Shown here in pieces: positions 3-15,998 of a stretch of DNA of 40,831 nucleotides. Each line of letters begins with the position of its first letter. Within the stretch, counting starts at the first letter, position 1. The DNA is from Halorubrum ezzemoulense DSM 17463 (GTDB taxonomy: Archaea; Halobacteriota; Halobacteria; Halobacteriales; Haloferacaceae). Made by a program: the position numbers and the translations under genes. The stretch spans positions 1-40,831 of the forward strand of contig NZ_NEDJ01000026.1 in assembly GCF_002114285.1 (NCBI RefSeq), written 5' to 3'. The notes under the pieces were generated by a model. The model did not search any database. It was not told the DNA's origin and was given only the letters and a program-made list of their open reading frames with translations.

Positions 3-95
3 TTCGCCGTGCGAGCGCGGTCATGGTTCCGTGAGTTCCGCGAAATCGCGCTGATGTGTGTCGTCTATAACATCAAACGCTTCGTCAAACAGTGA
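3..95 (+). mobile_element. IS transposase, C-terminal fragment
   Basis: An open frame enters from the window edge and stops at 93-95. Its translation (FAVRARSWFREFREIALM, then CVVYNIKRFVKQ) resembles the C-terminal tail of IS5-type haloarchaeal transposases, where an R-x-W-F-x-x-F-R-E segment followed by a basic NI-x-R helix is usual. Only 30 residues are visible, so the family is a judgement from this motif. The IS end should lie shortly downstream, between about 96 and 145, which would place the insertion in the 5' end of the following nucleotidyltransferase gene. Confidence 0.5.
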
Positions 96-468
96 ATCTC
101 TCCGCCTTACAGCGATTCAACACGGCCGATCACAGCTTTCGGGAACAGCTACACATTCATCAGATTTTGATATCGCTGTCAAGTTCACAACAGACTGTTC
201 TGAACGGGACCGGTTCAAAAAGCGGTGTGTACTCTCTGGTGAGCTCCAACACGAGGAGTTCCCATTCATCGACGTTTCCGATATTGACTCGCTCCCGCTA
301 GATGTCGCACACGACGCGGTAAATGGCGACCTGCTCTGTGGCGATAAACGGGCATTCGAGCAGTTCAAGACAGATATGGAGGCGGAATTTGACGAGCAAC
401 GTGAGACGCTTCGCCGGCACCAGCGGACAGTCATCGATCGGATAGCGGAGGATGGATTGCGTGGTTGA
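58..468 (+). pseudogene. MntA-like minimal nucleotidyltransferase (antitoxin), 5' end lost
   Basis: From about 142 the frame reads GTATHSSDFDIAVKF, the G-T-x-x-x-S-D-x-D-I/L core of minimal nucleotidyltransferases of the MNT/HEPN system. A typical MntA C-terminal half follows and ends at 468. In that family MntA adenylylates the HEPN toxin HepT and silences it. The residues before 142 do not form the expected F-G-S-x-x-x-G-T entry to the motif, and the transposase tail ends only about 45 bases upstream. The gene has therefore probably lost its N-terminus to an IS insertion. The 3' end overlaps the next gene by 17 bases, the usual layout of the pair. Confidence 0.55.
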
Positions 469-888
469 CGAACGCGTCGTTGCGGTCAAGCTCGAACAGA
501 TCGAGCAGTACTACAGTGAGCTCAAAACAAAACAAGAGACACTGCCTCGCCAAGAATTCCTCTCAAGTACAACAGAGCAACGTGCCGTCGAACGAATGTT
601 CGAAAACGCGATTCAGGCGTGTGCTGACCTCGCTCAACACGTCGCCTCACGCGAGTTCGAATTTGACGGGACGACATCAAAAGGCGCAATTCGAGTACTT
701 AACCGTGAGGGTGTGATCGACGAAGAGGCGGCTGGGACGCTCGTCGCCGCGATCGGCTTTCGAAATGTGCTTGTACACGAGTACGGGCACGTTGAGTACG
801 ACGAGGTATACGAAACCTCCAGACCGGCCTCTCTGTATACGAGACGTATAGCCAACAGATAGCACAATGGATACAGGAGAATAGTTGA
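452..888 (+). pseudogene. HepT-like HEPN RNase toxin (DUF86), C-terminus frameshifted
   Basis: This is a HEPN toxin partner of the upstream nucleotidyltransferase. The catalytic R-x4-H-x-Y motif is intact as RNVLVHEY. In the original frame the protein ends at 862 with an unconvincing tail. In the frame beginning at 817 the sequence reads LQTGLSVYETYSQQIAQWI and ends at 886-888, which is a typical HepT C-terminus. A single missing base near 815-817 explains both readings. The catalytic core remains and a toxin lacking its last helix might still be made, but with a damaged antitoxin next to it the module looks decayed. Confidence 0.6.
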
Positions 889-2526: not shown

Positions 2527-4056
2527 CTATGTAGACTCGAAGGCCTCGATTTCATCGATAACCTGCTTCGGATTCTCGGCGTGTTTGATGAACGAGAGGA
2601 CGGTCTCTGACCACCCGGAGACGTTGTAGACGTTCTCGTAGCCTTCCGGGGTCACGAGGTCGCCGTAGGATGCAAGATCGACGAGATACAGCGCGGTGTC
2701 CGTGGAGACCTCGTTCTGATATGCATCGAACGCTGCCTTGACCGTCTGGGTATCGCGTGCCGTGAATGGCGTGCTGTCCCAGATCTGCATGTCAGTGAAG
2801 ACGACGACGCGCTCAACGGGTTCTTCACGGTCGCGGAGATACTCCAGTGCCTTCCAGCCGTTCGTCGAGTTCCCGACATCCTCGTCGATGGCCAGCACCG
2901 CATCTTGGCGCTGTAGTACTGGCGTGTCGACGTACATCGGAACGGTCTGGAAATCGTCGCCGAACCCGCCGACCTCGGCACCTTGATCGGCCAGGATCGC
3001 CCCGAATAACGCGCCGATCTCTTTCAGGCGGAGCGTGCTGTTCGTGGATAGCGCCATGTCCATCGACCCTGAGAGGTCCACGGCGACGAATGTATCTCCG
3101 AGTCCATCGGGTACCGTCTCGACAGCGACGTCGATCGCCTTTTCCAGCCACCGCTCGACCGCTGGTGCTTGGACGTCAGCATTCTGGAGCGCGGTGTACG
3201 CCTGGTAGTACCGGAACGGGTACAGCGGCGCGTACCGGACTGCGTCCAAGTCAAGGTGGTCCACGATGGTGTCCTCGTCAACGCCGGCTTCAAGCATGTT
3301 CCGGAGGTTCCGGATCGACGCGAAGATCGGCAGTGAGTACGTGTCGTCCTCGATGAGCGTCTCCCACGCGGCTTGGGTGTTGCCGCGCTCGGAGATAACC
3401 GTCTCCCAGGTGTTCGGCGACGGCAACGGGTCGACGTCGGGATAGTCGTCGAGATCGCCGCGCATGAATCGCTCGAACAGCACCTCTTGGTCGGTGTCGA
3501 CGGGCGTGGGGTGGACGCGGTTGAATACGTCATACAGCGTCACCTCACGCCGCGACAGTTCGTACTTGCCCAGGGTGTAGGCGTCGGCCATCTCCACCAG
3601 TGCGTCTTCGATCCCGCGTCGAAGCGGCCACGGGGCAGTCCCGCCGAAGAGTTGGTCGTGGATAGCGAGGCTGGTCGCCGTCTCGTCCATCCGCTGGATG
3701 ATCGCCGGGGCCCACTCTCGGGTGAGTGATTCGGGGGAGTCGTCCTTGAATCGGTCGTCGTTGGCTGCCAGCACGAGCAAGACCTGTGGGATGTCCCGCA
3801 GGGAGAGTTCTTGGCGCGCGTACGCGGCGAGCTTCAGGACGAACTCCGGATCCTCGTCTGCCGCGGCGTCAAATCGCCGGACGACAGCAGCGAGCTGCTC
3901 GTCATCGGTTTCGTAGAACGAGTCCTCCAGCAGTTGGTTGATCGTGCGCTTGTACAGTGCGAGTCGTGGGTCGGCAGGCTCGAACGCTTCCCCACCCTCG
4001 TAGTTGGTGGTTCGCGTCGCCTCCGCGACCGTTTGTTTTGGCGTGTTGAATTCCAT
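2527..4056 (-). CDS. Ro60/Rsr-type TROVE and vWA protein
   Basis: This 509-residue protein is the archaeal counterpart of Ro60 (bacterial Rsr), a ring-shaped RNA-binding protein that holds Y RNAs on its outer face and the single-stranded 3' ends of misfolded RNAs in its central hole. Residues about 10-310 are helical-repeat TROVE sequence (for example LLVLAANDDR, IRNLRNMLEAGVD). Residues about 322-500 form a von Willebrand A domain with an intact MIDAS metal site: DLSGS at 327-331, T398, and D422 in FTDMQ. Length fits the family. It lies 68 bases downstream of tRNA-Arg, in the same direction as the tRNA array and the three Y-like RNAs, so the protein and its likely RNA partners appear co-transcribed. 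A 7-bp hairpin (GCTGCTC/GAGCAGC) sits in the leader. The family assignment is strong; the partnership is inferred from context and RNA structure. Confidence 0.9.
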   Translation of the reverse strand: MEFNTPKQTVAEATRTTNYEGGEAFEPADPRLALYKRTINQLLEDSFYETDDEQLAAVVRRFDAAADEDPEFVLKLAAYARQELSLRDIPQVLLVLAANDDRFKDDSPESLTREWAPAIIQRMDETATSLAIHDQLFGGTAPWPLRRGIEDALVEMADAYTLGKYELSRREVTLYDVFNRVHPTPVDTDQEVLFERFMRGDLDDYPDVDPLPSPNTWETVISERGNTQAAWETLIEDDTYSLPIFASIRNLRNMLEAGVDEDTIVDHLDLDAVRYAPLYPFRYYQAYTALQNADVQAPAVERWLEKAIDVAVETVPDGLGDTFVAVDLSGSMDMALSTNSTLRLKEIGALFGAILADQGAEVGGFGDDFQTVPMYVDTPVLQRQDAVLAIDEDVGNSTNGWKALEYLRDREEPVERVVVFTDMQIWDSTPFTARDTQTVKAAFDAYQNEVSTDTALYLVDLASYGDLVTPEGYENVYNVSGWSETVLSFIKHAENPKQVIDEIEAFEST

Positions 4057-4124
4057 GCTATCACGCGGAGCCGCAACAGGCGACTCCGATACCGGTGCTG
4101 CTCACACGTGCTGCGAGCAGCGAA

Positions 4125-4199
4125 CGTCTCCGGCACGATTCGAACGTGCGACACTCGGCTTCGAAGGCCGGTGCTCTGTCCGGACTGAGCTACGGAGAC
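4125..4199 (-). tRNA. tRNA-Arg(UCG)
   Basis: Acceptor GTCTCCG pairs with CGGAGAC, discriminator G. D stem GCTC/GAGC, anticodon loop CTTCGAA (anticodon TCG, reads CGA), T arm GCACG-TTCGAAT-CGTGC. One mismatch (C-A) sits at the base of the anticodon stem. It lies 5 bases after the third Y-like RNA and 68 bases before the Ro60 start. Confidence 0.88.
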
Positions 4200-4204
4200 A
4201 AAGA

Positions 4205-4340
4205 CGTGGCCGGGAAACCGCTGGAGCCGGAACAGCGTGCTACCTTTACACCACGGTGGAACAGTGAGATTCCACCGCCGGGATTCGAACCCGGACTTCC
4301 GGCTCCTGAGGCGAAGGATGACTCCAACTCGACGGCCACG
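4205..4340 (-). ncRNA. Y RNA candidate 1: permuted tRNA mimic
   Basis: The two ends pair as CGTGGCCG/CGGCCACG (8 bp). An asymmetric internal loop follows (TCGA opposite GGTTTCC), then a second helix GTTGGAG/CTCCAGC. Together they give GTCGAG on one strand and a GTT-pyrimidine-rich loop on the other, resembling the conserved Ro-binding stem of Y RNAs as I recall it. Inside, in order, come strand GCCGGAA, a perfect T arm (CCGGG-TTCGAAT-CCCGG), a closed 8-bp acceptor-like hairpin (CGGTGGAA/TTCCACCG, loop TCTCACTG), a D arm with AAAGGTAG loop (GTGT/GCAC), and strand TTCCGGC closing an anticodon-like stem. This is a circularly permuted tRNA hung on a Y-RNA stem, the same idea as bacterial YrlA RNAs. 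It is followed after 5 bases by tRNA-Arg and then the Ro60 gene. Confidence 0.8.
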
Positions 4341-4349
4341 AGATGAGTG

Positions 4350-4499
4350 ATGGCGACCGGAACACTGTCGGGGCGGGACCGGTGTCGAGAGCACCCTCGT
4401 GCTCTCTTTGTCCGGGATGTTATCGATGGACGGTGCCACCGACAGGATTTGAACCTGCGAGTTCCTGGCGAAGCAACGCCCCGACTCGACGGTCGCCAC
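4350..4499 (-). ncRNA. Y RNA candidate 2 with T arm
   Basis: The ends pair as GTGGCGACCG/CGGTCGCCAT (10 bp, one G-T). After the internal loop TCGA opposite AGTGTTC comes a perfect 9-bp helix GTCGGGGCG/CGCCCCGAC. The 5' strand therefore carries the same GTCGAG as its neighbours, and it runs on into the shared CTTCGCC. Inside are a T arm (GCAGG-TTCAAAT-CCTGT) followed by CGGTGGCA, which mimics the 3' end of a tRNA, then a GTCC/GGAC hairpin and a 7-bp hairpin AGAGCAC/GTGCTCT. No partner 5' acceptor exists for an ordinary tRNA. Nine bases separate it from the next Y-like RNA. Confidence 0.7.
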
Positions 4500-4589
4500 G
4501 TGCAGTCGGGCAACCGGTGGTGCGACGGGCTATGACTCCCGTTGGTGTGCTTTGCGGGCGAAGAAACGCACCACCTCGACGACCACACG
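4499..4589 (-). ncRNA. Y RNA candidate 3, minimal form
   Basis: The ends pair as CGTGTGGTCG/CGACTGCACG (10 bp with two G-T pairs). The internal loop TCGA opposite GGTTGCC gives GTCGAG on one strand and TTGCC on the other, the closest of the three to the Y-RNA consensus. The second helix is a perfect 9 bp, GGTGGTGCG/CGCACCACC. The interior begins with TTTCTTCGCC and contains a small ACGGG/CCCGT hairpin but no T arm. Its 3' end coincides with the 5' end of candidate 2, so the RNAs would need processing from a common precursor. Confidence 0.68.
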
Positions 4590-5500: not shown

Positions 5501-5627
5501 TGGGACGGGCAGGATTCGAACCTGCGTGTTCTCGTTACAAGTGAGATGAAGGAACTCTCACCGTCGCACCGGATCTCCGGTGAAAATTCGGCGAGAGTGT
5601 GTGAATGCCAGGCTCTTCCACCGTCCC
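5501..5627 (-). tRNA. tRNA-Thr(UGU), interrupted near the anticodon loop
   Basis: The 5' acceptor GGGACGG at 5621-5627 is a perfect match for the 3' acceptor CCGTCCC (discriminator A) at 5501-5508. A D arm with GCCTGGCA loop and a perfect T arm GCAGG-TTCGAAT-CCTGC are present. The anticodon loop CTTGTAA gives TGT (Thr). The 5' anticodon strand TCTCG (ending near 5592) would pair with CGAGA, but about 50 bases lie between it and the loop. The insert contains two 6-bp hairpins, CACCGG/CCGGTG and GTGAGA/TCTCAC, and is flanked by near-identical TCTCGC and TCTCAC. The gene begins 4 bases after tRNA-Tyr, the tight spacing of this array. An intron at this position would be non-canonical for haloarchaea. 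Confidence 0.75.
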
Positions 5628-6905: not shown

Positions 6906-6981
6906 TCGCCCCGGCCGGAATCGAACCGGCGACTTCCGGATTCAAAGTCCGGCGTCCCTCGCCAGCGGAGACTCCGGGGCT
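6906..6981 (-). tRNA. tRNA-Gln(UUG), first tRNA of the array
   Basis: Acceptor AGCCCCG/CGGGGCG with an A1-G72 mismatch (archaeal tRNA-Gln normally has A1-U72), discriminator A. Anticodon stem CCGGA/TCCGG, loop CTTTGAA (anticodon TTG), T arm GCCGG-TTCGATT-CCGGC. The mismatch at the terminal pair, next to where tRNA ends are trimmed, is unusual. Confidence 0.82.
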
Positions 6982-12841: not shown

Positions 12842-12964
12842 CCGTCACCCTATGTTGTCATCTCCATAGAAATAAAGGTGTGGACGAAAGAACATAGGTT
12901 TGGAGATAGAAGCCGAACATATCCGAGAGAGGTTCAAGAGAGGGCTGGGTTTCCGCTCCGATAC

Positions 12965-13148
12965 TCAGGCGGACGCGGAGCGTCGTTCGCCGGGGAAGCG
13001 GTCGTGGAGGCGGAGTACGTCTTCGACGAGGCGCCGGCGCGTCTCGAGGTGGTCCCACTCACGGGCCGCTTGTCGACGGTCGCGTTCATCTGTGAGGTCT
13101 TCTGTCCGGCTGAGGCTCGCACGGAGTTGGTTGGCTGTTTCGACGTCG
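12965..13148 (-). pseudogene. Remnant of a DUF7342-like HTH gene
   Basis: A diverged copy of 11241-11424 (offset 1724): same stop region, the RRLVED and GERRSASA tail, and LRASL, with scattered substitutions but no gap. Only the last third of the gene is present. It breaks off inside an octamer CGACGTCG where aglF-derived sequence takes over, pointing to recombination at microhomology. Confidence 0.75.
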
Positions 13149-13255
13149 ACTACCCCGAGGACCGCGACAAAGCCAAGTGGAGCCTCGCCGGCGACGAGAT
13201 CGCAGAATCCGACACCAGCATCGAGGATGTCGACGAGCCCGACGCGGTGCCAAAC
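13141..13255 (+). pseudogene. Second remnant of the aglF 3' end
   Basis: Reads VDYPEDRDKAKWSLAGDEIA in the aglF frame, matching VGYPEDRDEAERRLQGDDAD of the parent, then an acidic tail ending near 13255. More diverged than the first copy, so older or from another strain. It may be the original neighbour of aglM. Confidence 0.65.
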
Positions 13256-13286
13256 CCTAAAACGCCCGTCCCCGAACCCCCATCTA

Positions 13287-15998
13287 ATGCGCGTGAGCAT
13301 CGTCGGCAGCGGCTACGTGGGGACGACCGTCGCGGCCTGCTTCGCCGACATGGGCCACGAGGTGGTGAACGTCGACATCGACGAGGAGATCGTCGCGGCG
13401 ATCAACGACGGCCGCGCGCCGATCCACGAACCGGGTCTCGACGACCTCCTCGCGGAACACGGCGGCGGCACGCTCACGGCGACGACCGACTACGCCGCCG
13501 TCCGCGACACCGACCTCACGTTCCTCGCGCTGCCGACCCCCGCGAACGACGACGGGAGCATCGACACGTCGATCATCGAGGCGGGCGCCGAGGCGCTCGG
13601 CGACGCCCTCCGGACGAAGGACGGCGACCACGTCGTCGTGACGAAAAGCACCGTCGTCCCGACGACCACCGGGGAGACACTCGCCCCGATCCTCGTCGAA
13701 GCCTCGGGGAAGGAGTTCGGCGACGACCTCCATGTGGCGATGAACCCAGAGTTCCTCCGCGAGGGGACGGCCGTCGCGGACTTCCAGTCGCCCGACAAGG
13801 TCGTGTTCGGCACGCGGCCCGACGACGCGGTCGCGCTCGACGCCCTTCGTGGGGTGTTCGAACCGCTCCTCGACGCCACCGACGCCGCGGTCGTCGAGAC
13901 GGGGATCGCCGAGGCCGAGATGATCAAGTACGCCAACAACGCGTTCCTCGCGAGCAAGGTCAGCCTCATCAACGACATCGGGAACGTCTGCAAGCAGTTC
14001 GGCGTCGACGCCTACGAGGTGGCCGACGCGGTCGGCCTCGACGACCGCATCGGCGAGCGCTTCCTCCGCTCCGGCTTAGGGTGGGGGGGAAGTTGTCTGA
14101 CGGGCGATCAGCGTGTTCTAGCGAAAGACGAGACAGGTACGAGACATCTCACGCTCGGCGAGTTCTTCGACGAGTACGTTTCCGACGGGACCGTCGACGA
14201 CGTTTCGGTACTCAGTCGGTCGGAACAGGGCGAGTTCGCGTTCAAGCCCGTCAAGGTGGCGACGCGCCGCCGATACGACGGTCCGCTACACACGATCCGG
14301 ACGAAAATGAACAAACGGGTGACCGTCACGCACGACCATCCGATGATTACGCTAAAGGGGAACGATACCGCGGTCAAGCCGGCTGCGGAGCTCGAAGCGG
14401 GAGATTCCGTGCCGGTGTTGGCCGATCTCCCGAGCGATCCCGTTTCGGAGTTTGACCTCATCGAGATCGTTGCCGAGTCGCCCGACTTCGAGAACGATCG
14501 GGTGTATCTGAAACCGTCGACGCCGTTGGAGGCGAACAAAGACGAGGTGTACGAGGTGCTTCGCGCGTACAACCGTCAGTTCGACTATCACAAGCTCTCC
14601 GATCTCGTTCGAGATAACTACCTGCCGCTCGACGTGTTCCTCACCTACGAGGAGGAGTTACCGGTCGACAGGGAAGACCTGTCTCTCTACACGACGCGGG
14701 ACGGTGGGCAGACGTACGTGCCAGCCATACTCCGCGCAGACGAGCAGTTCTGGCGGTTCATCGGGTACTATCTCAGTGAGGGCCACATCAACGACGACAC
14801 CTCTGGACACGGGTCGACCACCAGAAGACGGATTCAGTTGAGTTTCCATCCAAGCGATGAACCGGAGTACGTCAGCGATGTTGAGTCGTACTACGAGGAT
14901 CTGGGGATTCGGTATCAAACAAGGCAACAGGAGACTACGACGGCGATCAGCGTCTCCAGCCGGGTTTTCGCCGCGTTCCTCGAGTGGCTCGGCTGTGGTA
15001 CCGGCTCCTACTCCGCGGCGATCCCCGACGACGCGTTCCAAGCGACGGCCGACGAACGCGTGGCGTTGCTTTCGGGACTGTTCCGCGGTGACGGGCATAT
15101 CGAGTACACCAATCACTCGAACGCCGTTGTCTACGACTATGGCTCCGTTAGCGAGGAGTTGATCGACGGGATGACTCTGCTACTCCACAGTCTCGGCATC
15201 GTCCCGAGCTACAAGACCTCGCAGTCGGCGAAGTCGACGCGGCCGGCCCACTTCCTGCGTGTGAGTTCGAAACGCCAGATCGCGGCGCTGAAGGAGCTGT
15301 TCCTGCCCGAAGAGCAAGACCGGATCGACGATCGGCTCGACGCGTATGATCGGGACATCGCACCGACGGGGCACACGGCGGACGGCGGATTTACCTCAGT
15401 TCCGGTTCGCGATGTCACCGTCGAGGAGACGACGACGGACGTTTACTCGCTGGAAGTCGCCGAGGACCATACGTTCGTGACGACCGACGGACTAGTCGTT
15501 CACAACTGCTTCCCGAAGGACACGAATGCTATAATTGCGGCCGCGAAGGATACCGGCTACGACCCCGAGTTGCTCGAGGCGGCCGTGCGCGTGAACGACG
15601 GGCAGCCGGATCGGCTGCTCGCGCTGCTCGACGACCACGTCGACGTGCGCGGCGAGCGCGTCGCCGTCCTCGGGCTCTCGTTTAAGTCGGGCACCGACGA
15701 CGTCCGGAACTCCCGAGCGATCCCCGTCATCAAGGGGCTACAAGCGCGCGGTGCGACCGTGGTCGCGTACGATCCGGTGGCGACGGAGAACATGCGCGCG
15801 CACTTCCCGGACGTGGAGTACGCCGACTCGGCGGCGGCCGCGCTCGACGGCGCGAGCGCGTGCGTCGTCTGTACCGACTGGGACGAGTTCGCCGCGCTCG
15901 ACGCGGAGTTCGACGCGATGGACGCCCCGATCGTCGTCGACGGCCGGCGGATCATCGAACGGCGCGACGGACTCACCTACGAGGGACTCACCTGGTAG
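13287..15998 (+). CDS. aglM: UDP-glucose 6-dehydrogenase AglM with intein
   Basis: Oxidises UDP-glucose to UDP-glucuronate with NAD, the step after AglF in N-glycan precursor synthesis. The start MRVSIVGSGYVGTTVAACFA gives the Rossmann GxGYVG loop; frame upstream of 13287 is remnant sequence. MIKYANNAFLASKVSLIND carries the conserved Lys/Asn of the active site. The catalytic cysteine region GGSCFPKD is interrupted: residues 1-269 are N-extein, 270-740 an intein, and 741-903 C-extein beginning CFPKD. The exteins together are 432 residues, normal for the enzyme. Activity therefore depends on protein splicing, because the nucleophile Cys is also the +1 residue of the splice. Confidence 0.92.
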   Translation: MRVSIVGSGYVGTTVAACFADMGHEVVNVDIDEEIVAAINDGRAPIHEPGLDDLLAEHGGGTLTATTDYAAVRDTDLTFLALPTPANDDGSIDTSIIEAGAEALGDALRTKDGDHVVVTKSTVVPTTTGETLAPILVEASGKEFGDDLHVAMNPEFLREGTAVADFQSPDKVVFGTRPDDAVALDALRGVFEPLLDATDAAVVETGIAEAEMIKYANNAFLASKVSLINDIGNVCKQFGVDAYEVADAVGLDDRIGERFLRSGLGWGGSCLTGDQRVLAKDETGTRHLTLGEFFDEYVSDGTVDDVSVLSRSEQGEFAFKPVKVATRRRYDGPLHTIRTKMNKRVTVTHDHPMITLKGNDTAVKPAAELEAGDSVPVLADLPSDPVSEFDLIEIVAESPDFENDRVYLKPSTPLEANKDEVYEVLRAYNRQFDYHKLSDLVRDNYLPLDVFLTYEEELPVDREDLSLYTTRDGGQTYVPAILRADEQFWRFIGYYLSEGHINDDTSGHGSTTRRRIQLSFHPSDEPEYVSDVESYYEDLGIRYQTRQQETTTAISVSSRVFAAFLEWLGCGTGSYSAAIPDDAFQATADERVALLSGLFRGDGHIEYTNHSNAVVYDYGSVSEELIDGMTLLLHSLGIVPSYKTSQSAKSTRPAHFLRVSSKRQIAALKELFLPEEQDRIDDRLDAYDRDIAPTGHTADGGFTSVPVRDVTVEETTTDVYSLEVAEDHTFVTTDGLVVHNCFPKDTNAIIAAAKDTGYDPELLEAAVRVNDGQPDRLLALLDDHVDVRGERVAVLGLSFKSGTDDVRNSRAIPVIKGLQARGATVVAYDPVATENMRAHFPDVEYADSAAAALDGASACVVCTDWDEFAALDAEFDAMDAPIVVDGRRIIERRDGLTYEGLTW
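14094..15506 (+). mobile_element. Intein with LAGLIDADG endonuclease domain in AglM
   Basis: 471 residues starting CLTGDQRVL (Cys1 nucleophile, block A), block B-like region with TVTHDHPMITL, and ending VYSLEVAEDHTFVTTDGLVV then HN before the +1 Cys. The middle has two dodecapeptide motifs, FIGYYLSEGHIN and LLSGLFRGDGHIE, so the homing endonuclease looks intact. Base composition is less GC-rich than the exteins, as expected for a recent arrival. Confidence 0.9.

What the first reader, a model, noticed from the sequence alone, without database searches (positions are those of the whole stretch)
4205..4340. A Y RNA built as a circularly permuted tRNA
The order T arm, closed acceptor hairpin (8 bp with an 8-nt loop), D arm, and an anticodon-like stem joined to the outer Ro-type stem is exactly a tRNA cut in the anticodon arm with its natural ends joined. 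Every helix is perfectly or nearly perfectly paired. Bacterial YrlA RNAs mimic tRNA in the same permuted way. Seeing it in an archaeon next to Ro60 and real tRNAs argues either for common descent or for repeated invention from array tRNAs.
Basis: seen in the sequence. Interest (0 to 1): 0.92.

Follow-up and report, generated by a model that had tools for sequence, protein, structure and literature searches.

The report
Archaeal Y RNA with tRNA-like fold
Next to its Ro60 gene this salt-loving archaeon encodes a small RNA that is a whole transfer RNA rearranged in a circle with a Ro60-binding stem added, a design known from bacterial "YrlA" Y RNAs and found here in archaea, where related genomes also carry the same parts in ordinary tRNA order.

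Summary
The RNA lies on the minus strand (5' end 4340, 3' end 4205). Outer stem, T arm, acceptor hairpin and D arm keep pairing across 24 haloarchaeal homologs far better than a tree-based null. Undoing the permutation and removing the Ro stem gives an ARAGORN-callable tRNA in 25/25 homologs (0/500 random rotations). A model built only from haloarchaeal copies finds phage and Deinococcus YrlA-like RNAs beside their Ro60 genes. So this is an archaeal Y RNA of bacterial YrlA design, one of three in an array ahead of Ro60. The same parts also occur unpermuted: a tRNA with a closed Ro stem inserted at the same point, in this window (5627-5501), in halovirus HGTV-1, and directly upstream of Ro60 in four other archaea. 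The genome lacks PNPase and exosome domains, so the bacterial PNPase-tether model cannot simply carry over. Ro60 binding and expression are untested.

The parts
4205..4340 (-). Y RNA type A: permuted four-armed tRNA with Ro stem (5' end 4340, 3' end 4205)
   Evidence: fold z -4.19; model R1 148 bits, one of 22 copies over 100 bits in the order; undone form is tRNA-Leu(cag)-like by ARAGORN
4333..4340 (-). outer Ro stem, 5' strand, pairs with 4205-4212
   Evidence: 98% paired, 2 compensatory events
4205..4212 (-). outer Ro stem, 3' strand
4320..4328 (-). inner Ro helix 5' strand (after the GTCGA internal-loop motif), pairs with 4220-4228
   Evidence: 97% paired, 4 compensatory events
4220..4228 (-). 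inner Ro helix 3' strand, followed by the conserved NNUUUUC-type loop strand 4219-4213
4299..4315 (-). anticodon stem-loop (TTCGC, loop CTCAGGA, GCCGG; C-C mismatch in this clade)
   Evidence: 5-7-5 hairpin with varied pairs in other Y RNAs
4278..4294 (-). T arm CCGGG-TTCGAAT-CCCGG
4254..4277 (-). closed acceptor hairpin CGGTGGAA-TCTCACTG-TTCCACCG
   Evidence: compensatory columns 64-87, 65-86, 67-84
4237..4253 (-). U8, position 9 and D arm GTGTAAAGGTAGCAC
   Evidence: D stem 100% paired; 13-22 pair varies U-G, U-A, C-G, G-C
4352..4497 (-). Y RNA type B: Ro stem, T arm, acceptor hairpin, D arm replaced by an ACAAAG/CGACA arm
   Evidence: R1 58 bits; 17 compensatory events against 1.4 expected in 44 homologs
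4501..4587 (-). Y RNA type C: Ro stem with short hairpin, no tRNA arms
   Evidence: R1 42 bits; shared CGTCGAG..TTCG motif
4124..4200 (-). tRNA-Arg(tcg), 4 nt after the Y RNA
   Evidence: ARAGORN; same neighbour in most TROVE loci
2527..4056 (-). Ro60-type protein: TROVE and vWA domains
   Evidence: Pfam TROVE 71 bits, E 1.3e-19; D-SGSM motif invariant in the alignment
5501..5627 (-). Unpermuted counterpart (type N): tRNA order, closed Ro stem (5598-5554) between D arm and anticodon arm
   Evidence: Rfam tRNA 35 bits for part; Ro stem found in over 20 loci; ARAGORN calls tRNA-Thr(tgt) once the Ro stem is removed

Best explanation
The RNA is an archaeal Y RNA of the bacterial YrlA design. Ro60, encoded just downstream, most likely binds its end-to-end stem at the conserved internal loop (UCGA opposite NNUUUUC). 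The other end folds into the L shape of a tRNA, made from a complete four-armed tRNA whose natural ends are joined by a short loop and which is opened between D arm and anticodon arm, where the Ro stem is attached. The tRNA-shaped end most likely serves as a handle that docks an enzyme able to bind tRNA, tethering it to the Ro60 ring or blocking the ring until structured or damaged RNA is to be handled. Shown here: structure in homologs, linkage to Ro60, likeness to YrlA, absence of PNPase. Inferred: transcription, Ro60 binding, L-shaped fold, tether or gate role. Because PNPase and exosome are missing, an RNB-family (RNase R-like) enzyme is my first candidate for the partner.
For: Structure kept in homologs. 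Undone RNA is a tRNA in 25/25, random rotations 0/500. U8, A14, G18G19 and TTCRA kept; position 15-48 is A-U in 24 of 25 haloarchaeal copies and G-C in 10 of 14 phage and other copies, as in the tRNA Levitt pair. R1, trained on haloarchaea only, finds RNAs upstream of Ro60 in a Xanthomonas phage (51.6 bits, E 1e-12), a Caulobacter phage (40.1), a Streptomyces phage (34.0) and Deinococcus (30.8), and beside Ro60 in a viral contig (56.1 bits); two of the Xanthomonas ones also match Rfam YrlA (55.9, 46.7 bits). Of 27 TROVE genomes, 25 have R1 hits; of the rest 3 do, one of these with the start of a TROVE gene next to the RNA and two at the level of tandem tRNAs. No RNase_PH domain, one RNB protein and one RtcB in the genome. 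In Allomeiothermus silvanus TROVE is followed by an RNB ribonuclease gene.
Against: The window copy itself reaches only 18.8 bits in Rfam YrlA (cut-off 69) and was not listed in a narrower run. No pair is individually significant by the tree-based test. No expression or binding data. The conserved link to Ro60 does not show binding.
Confidence: 0.78

Rival explanations
1. A circularly permuted tRNA gene: the RNA is a precursor that is cut and ligated into a working tRNA, as in red algae and Thermofilum.
For: Four tRNA arms in permuted order; undone form is called a tRNA.
Against: Anticodon differs between orthologs (CAG, GTG, GTT, CAA, CTC). The acceptor loop can be as short as about 3 nt, with no room for tRNA 3' processing (L139). 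No bulge-helix-bulge at the junction by inspection. Sister RNAs B, T-only and C in the same arrays lack arms.
Confidence: 0.05
2. A chance or degenerate product of a tRNA array: the tail of one tRNA followed by the head of the next imitates the permuted order.
For: Tandem tRNAs do score up to about 32 bits with R1, for example two Thr tRNAs in HGTV-1.
Against: Type A scores 100-162 bits, has well matched acceptor strands that co-vary, and is framed by a co-varying Ro stem absent from tandem tRNAs.
Confidence: 0.03
3. A tRNA decoy: the RNA, held by Ro60, mainly soaks up an anticodon nuclease or a tRNA-modifying enzyme and so protects tRNAs, perhaps for a plasmid or virus with its own tRNA set.
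For: Complete tRNA shape with anticodon loop retained; it sits in tRNA arrays, on plasmids and in viruses; suggested for YrlA in PMC7790460.
Against: PMC7790460 found YrlA not to be a substrate of the tested nuclease (though a decoy need not be cut); T-only and C RNAs lack the shape.
Confidence: 0.14

Closest known systems
YrlA bacterial Y RNA (Rfam RF02553; PDB 6CU1)
   Same: Beside Ro60; end-to-end stem; T arm, acceptor hairpin, U8, D arm in that order; known circular permutation relative to tRNA (PMC11472068). The same undo-operation turns 12 of 14 phage, Deinococcus and other relatives into tRNAs.
   Different: Archaeal; below Rfam's cut-off; arrays of several RNAs including forms with an altered third arm; host without PNPase.
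Deinococcus radiodurans Y RNA / RYPER complex
   Same: Ro60 partner RNA with tether or gate logic (described in PMC8394870, PMC7790460).
   Different: RYPER needs PNPase, whose RNase_PH domain is absent from this genome.
Permuted tRNA genes of algae and Thermofilum (from general knowledge)
   Same: 3' half before 5' half.
   Different: Those are cut in the anticodon loop and matured into tRNAs; here the opening is at position 26/27 and carries a Ro stem.
Archaeal intron-containing tRNAs
   Same: Type N looks like a tRNA with a long insert and was annotated so in HGTV-1 (tRNA-Asp + intron).
   Different: The insert is a closed Ro stem plus UUNCUUC between D arm and anticodon arm, without a bulge-helix-bulge seen.

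Membership tests
YrlA-type Y RNA | Encoded beside a Ro60 (TROVE) gene | tested here: met
   RNA ends at 4205, gene starts at 4056 on the same strand; 25/27 TROVE genomes carry R1 hits
YrlA-type Y RNA | 5' and 3' ends pair in a long stem | tested here: met
   outer 8 bp and inner 9 bp, co-varying
YrlA-type Y RNA | tRNA-like module in permuted order T, acceptor, D | tested here: met
YrlA-type Y RNA | Homology by covariance model | tested here: met
   R1 finds phage Y RNAs with E 1e-12; the same RNAs match RF02553
Rfam RF02553 as curated | Score at or above 69 bits | tested here: not met
   18.8 bits; the phage relatives tested also fall below
YrlA-type Y RNA | Binds Ro60; carries D and pseudouridine | not testable with these tools
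   needs biochemistry
RYPER (Ro60-Y RNA-PNPase) | PNPase present | tested here: not met
   no RNase_PH domain in a 99.9% complete genome; control search positive in 12 of 14 genomes
Permuted tRNA gene | Conserved decoding anticodon | tested here: not met
   anticodon differs among orthologs
Permuted tRNA gene or tRNA intron | Bulge-helix-bulge splice motif | tested here: inconclusive
   none seen by inspection of sequence and folds; no dedicated search run

The most novel reading that the evidence does not exclude
Ro60-associated Y RNAs share one circular ground plan, a complete four-armed tRNA with a Ro-binding stem between D arm and anticodon arm, and nature uses it opened at either of two places: at the Ro stem (permuted, YrlA and type A) or at the acceptor end (unpermuted, type N). 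Both forms stand in one array here, and related archaea have one or the other directly ahead of Ro60, so the two have interconverted, perhaps through tandem duplication.
Probability: 0.6. Interest if true: 0.87.

Novelty: new variant of a known kind. Interest (0 to 1): 0.74.

Why it matters
It carries tRNA-mimicking Y RNAs into the archaea, in hosts that lack PNPase, so it separates what Ro60 and Y RNA do from the PNPase tether. The unpermuted forms make an open question testable: whether Y RNAs arose from tRNAs, by which step, and why ends in the Ro stem were preferred. It also corrects annotation, since such RNAs are now recorded as tRNAs or tRNAs with introns, or not at all.

Tried and rejected
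Plus-strand reading of 4205-4340: also folds but the tRNA consensus lies on the minus strand. R-scape-like single-pair test: no significant pair, too little divergence. HGTV-1 hits of R1 at 48-50 kb: tandem tRNAs, not Y RNAs. Origin of the tRNA body from a particular haloarchaeal tRNA: best identity 0.73-0.78 (His, Gly, Asp), no better than between unrelated tRNAs (mean 0.77), so inconclusive. A model for type N was not built because its alignment was poor. Key papers on YrlA (PMC4201824, PMC6047535, PMC6281776) are not held, so absence of archaeal Y RNAs from the literature rests on searches of the open library only.

Full report
WHAT IS THERE. The RNA is read from the minus strand, 4340 to 4205. 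In 5' to 3' order it has: an outer stem (4340-4333 with 4212-4205); a small internal loop with GTCGAG on one side and GGTTTCC on the other; an inner stem (4328-4320 with 4228-4220); TTCGC-CTCAGGA-GCCGG; the T arm; the acceptor 3' strand, loop and 5' strand; U8; the D arm; and back into the Ro stem. It folds with z -4.19, none of 200 shuffles as stable. Four nt further comes tRNA-Arg(tcg), then a TROVE/vWA (Ro60) protein gene on the same strand. The contig is probably Halorubrum ezzemoulense DSM 17463: the published tRNA cluster of that strain ends at 6981, as here, and TROVE genes accompany 20 of 29 archaeal tRNA clusters (PMC6333295). That paper, as far as the passages read show, does not mention Y RNAs.

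AN ARRAY, NOT ONE RNA. Two more RNAs with the same stem motif (CGTCGAG..TTCG and ..UUUUCC) lie upstream on the minus strand: B (4497-4352) and C (4587-4501), with gaps of 3 and 11 nt. Named haloarchaea (Halobellus, Haloarcula, Natribaculum, Halorientalis, Halosimplex and others) carry one to four such RNAs ahead of Ro60, most of them followed by tRNA-Arg(tcg); these counts come from a pattern scan that misses some copies. Types are A (full permuted tRNA), B (third arm replaced by an ACAAAG/CGACA arm), T-arm only, and C.

CONSERVATION OF STRUCTURE. In 24 A homologs the tRNA-like helices are 97.4% paired, against 72.8% when the same substitutions are re-scattered along the tree, and carry 3 double compensatory changes against 0.22 expected. 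For the whole structure the slid-partner control gives a covariation score of 0.03-0.08 against 0.27. Single pairs are not significant because the copies split into two main clades. B gives independent support: 17 events against 1.4 in 44 sequences.

A COMPLETE tRNA, OPENED BETWEEN D ARM AND ANTICODON ARM. Many full relatives have a hairpin with a 7-nt loop 5' of the T arm, usually with U at loop position 2 and A at position 7: UUCGC-CUGUGGA-GCGAG in a haloarchaeon, UUCGA-CUUGUAA-UCGAG in a Xanthomonas phage, UUCAC-CUCUGGA-GUGAG in a Streptomyces phage (the blocks compared were chosen by hand). The window clade has a C-C mismatch in it. Put back in natural order with the Ro stem cut out, all 25 haloarchaeal sequences are called tRNAs by ARAGORN (71-73 nt in those printed); the printed examples are not called as written, and none of 500 random rotations is. 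The same operation turns 12 of 14 phage, Deinococcus and other copies into tRNAs; one of those 12, and one of the two failures, is also called as written. So the opening is at position 26/27, not in the anticodon arm.

RELATION TO YrlA. The Rfam YrlA consensus reads T arm, acceptor hairpin, UA, D arm, the same permutation, and the circular permutation of the crystal structure 6CU1 relative to tRNA is published (PMC11472068). A model built only from haloarchaeal copies finds RNAs ahead of Ro60 in Xanthomonas, Caulobacter, Brevundimonas and Streptomyces phages and in Deinococcus, and just behind Ro60 in a viral contig, with up to 56 bits and E 5e-14. Two of the Xanthomonas copies also match the YrlA model. 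Tandem tRNAs reach about 32 bits, so hits below that (Deinococcus 30.8, L111 27.4) lean on position and stem pairing. I file it as a Y RNA of YrlA design, not as an Rfam RF02553 member.

THE UNPERMUTED FORM. At 5627-5501 (minus) the window holds acceptor 5' strand, D arm, a closed Ro stem (CTCTCGCCG AATTTTC ACCGG AGAT CCGGT GCGA CGGTGAGAG), TTCCTTC, anticodon-like hairpin, T arm, acceptor 3' strand. Over 20 loci have it, as does halovirus HGTV-1, where it is annotated as tRNA-Asp with intron, and a second viral contig with a related Ro60 (L179). In four genomes of another archaeal family of the same phylum it stands directly ahead of Ro60 (L112-L115), while a fifth genome of that family (L111) has the permuted form there. 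Cutting out the Ro stem gives ARAGORN tRNA calls in all six N copies tried, one of them without a clear anticodon. A and N therefore contain the same parts in the same circular order and differ in which end is closed.

HOW IT MIGHT WORK. In bacteria Ro60 and Y RNA tether PNPase (PMC8394870, PMC7790460). This genome has no RNase_PH domain, so neither PNPase nor exosome, but has one RNB ribonuclease and RtcB. Most likely the tRNA-shaped end docks another enzyme; an RNB ribonuclease gene follows TROVE in Allomeiothermus silvanus. This step is inference. A decoy role for tRNA nucleases or modifying enzymes is the main rival.

DESCENT. The Ro stem, the UUNCUUC link, the insertion point and the linkage to Ro60 are shared, which favours one origin or transfer of the unit. 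The tRNA bodies differ in identity even within one phage array (Thr-, Glu- and Asp-like calls in L163), which suggests repeated swapping of the tRNA body. Tandem tRNAs show how permuted order can arise. The tools could not decide between these.

Noticed in passing
window 5627-5501 (-): Unpermuted tRNA with a closed Ro stem between D arm and anticodon arm; ARAGORN misses it.
   Followed up: yes
L112, L113, L114, L115, directly upstream of TROVE: Unpermuted Y RNAs in another archaeal family of the phylum; the related genome L111 has the permuted form in the same place.
   Followed up: partly
L061 6022-6153 (HGTV-1 gene 136): Annotated tRNA-Asp + intron is an unpermuted Y RNA 2.8 kb from the viral TROVE gene; a Xanthomonas phage tRNA-Thr annotation (L163 3795-3862) overlaps a Y RNA.
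   Followed up: yes
window 4352-4497 (-) and homologs: Type B Y RNAs replace the D arm by an arm with conserved ACAAAG and CGACA strands; its fold and role are unknown.
   Followed up: partly
window 4325-4320 and 4306-4301 (-): GGAG-containing sequence repeated, so two helices compete for the same 3' strand; could be a switch or mere leftover.
   Followed up: partly
window 4677-4592 (-): Hairpin with perfect TGACAGCG/CGCTGTCA arms and a TTTTCC strand after tRNA-Glu; possible further Ro-stem-like element.
   Followed up: no
L169 4046-5854: RNB-domain ribonuclease gene directly after TROVE in Allomeiothermus silvanus; a possible Ro60 partner in organisms without PNPase.
   Followed up: no
window 12900-15998 (+): Sugar-nucleotide dehydrogenase-like reading frame with what looks like an intein inserted (from reading the translation only).
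   Followed up: no
window 58-862 (+): HepT-like HEPN protein (452-862) behind a small reading frame that may be its nucleotidyltransferase partner.
   Followed up: no
L045 3020-3211 and L082: Type A copies with a 50-60 nt insertion next to the acceptor hairpin that still keeps acceptor pairing.
   Followed up: no
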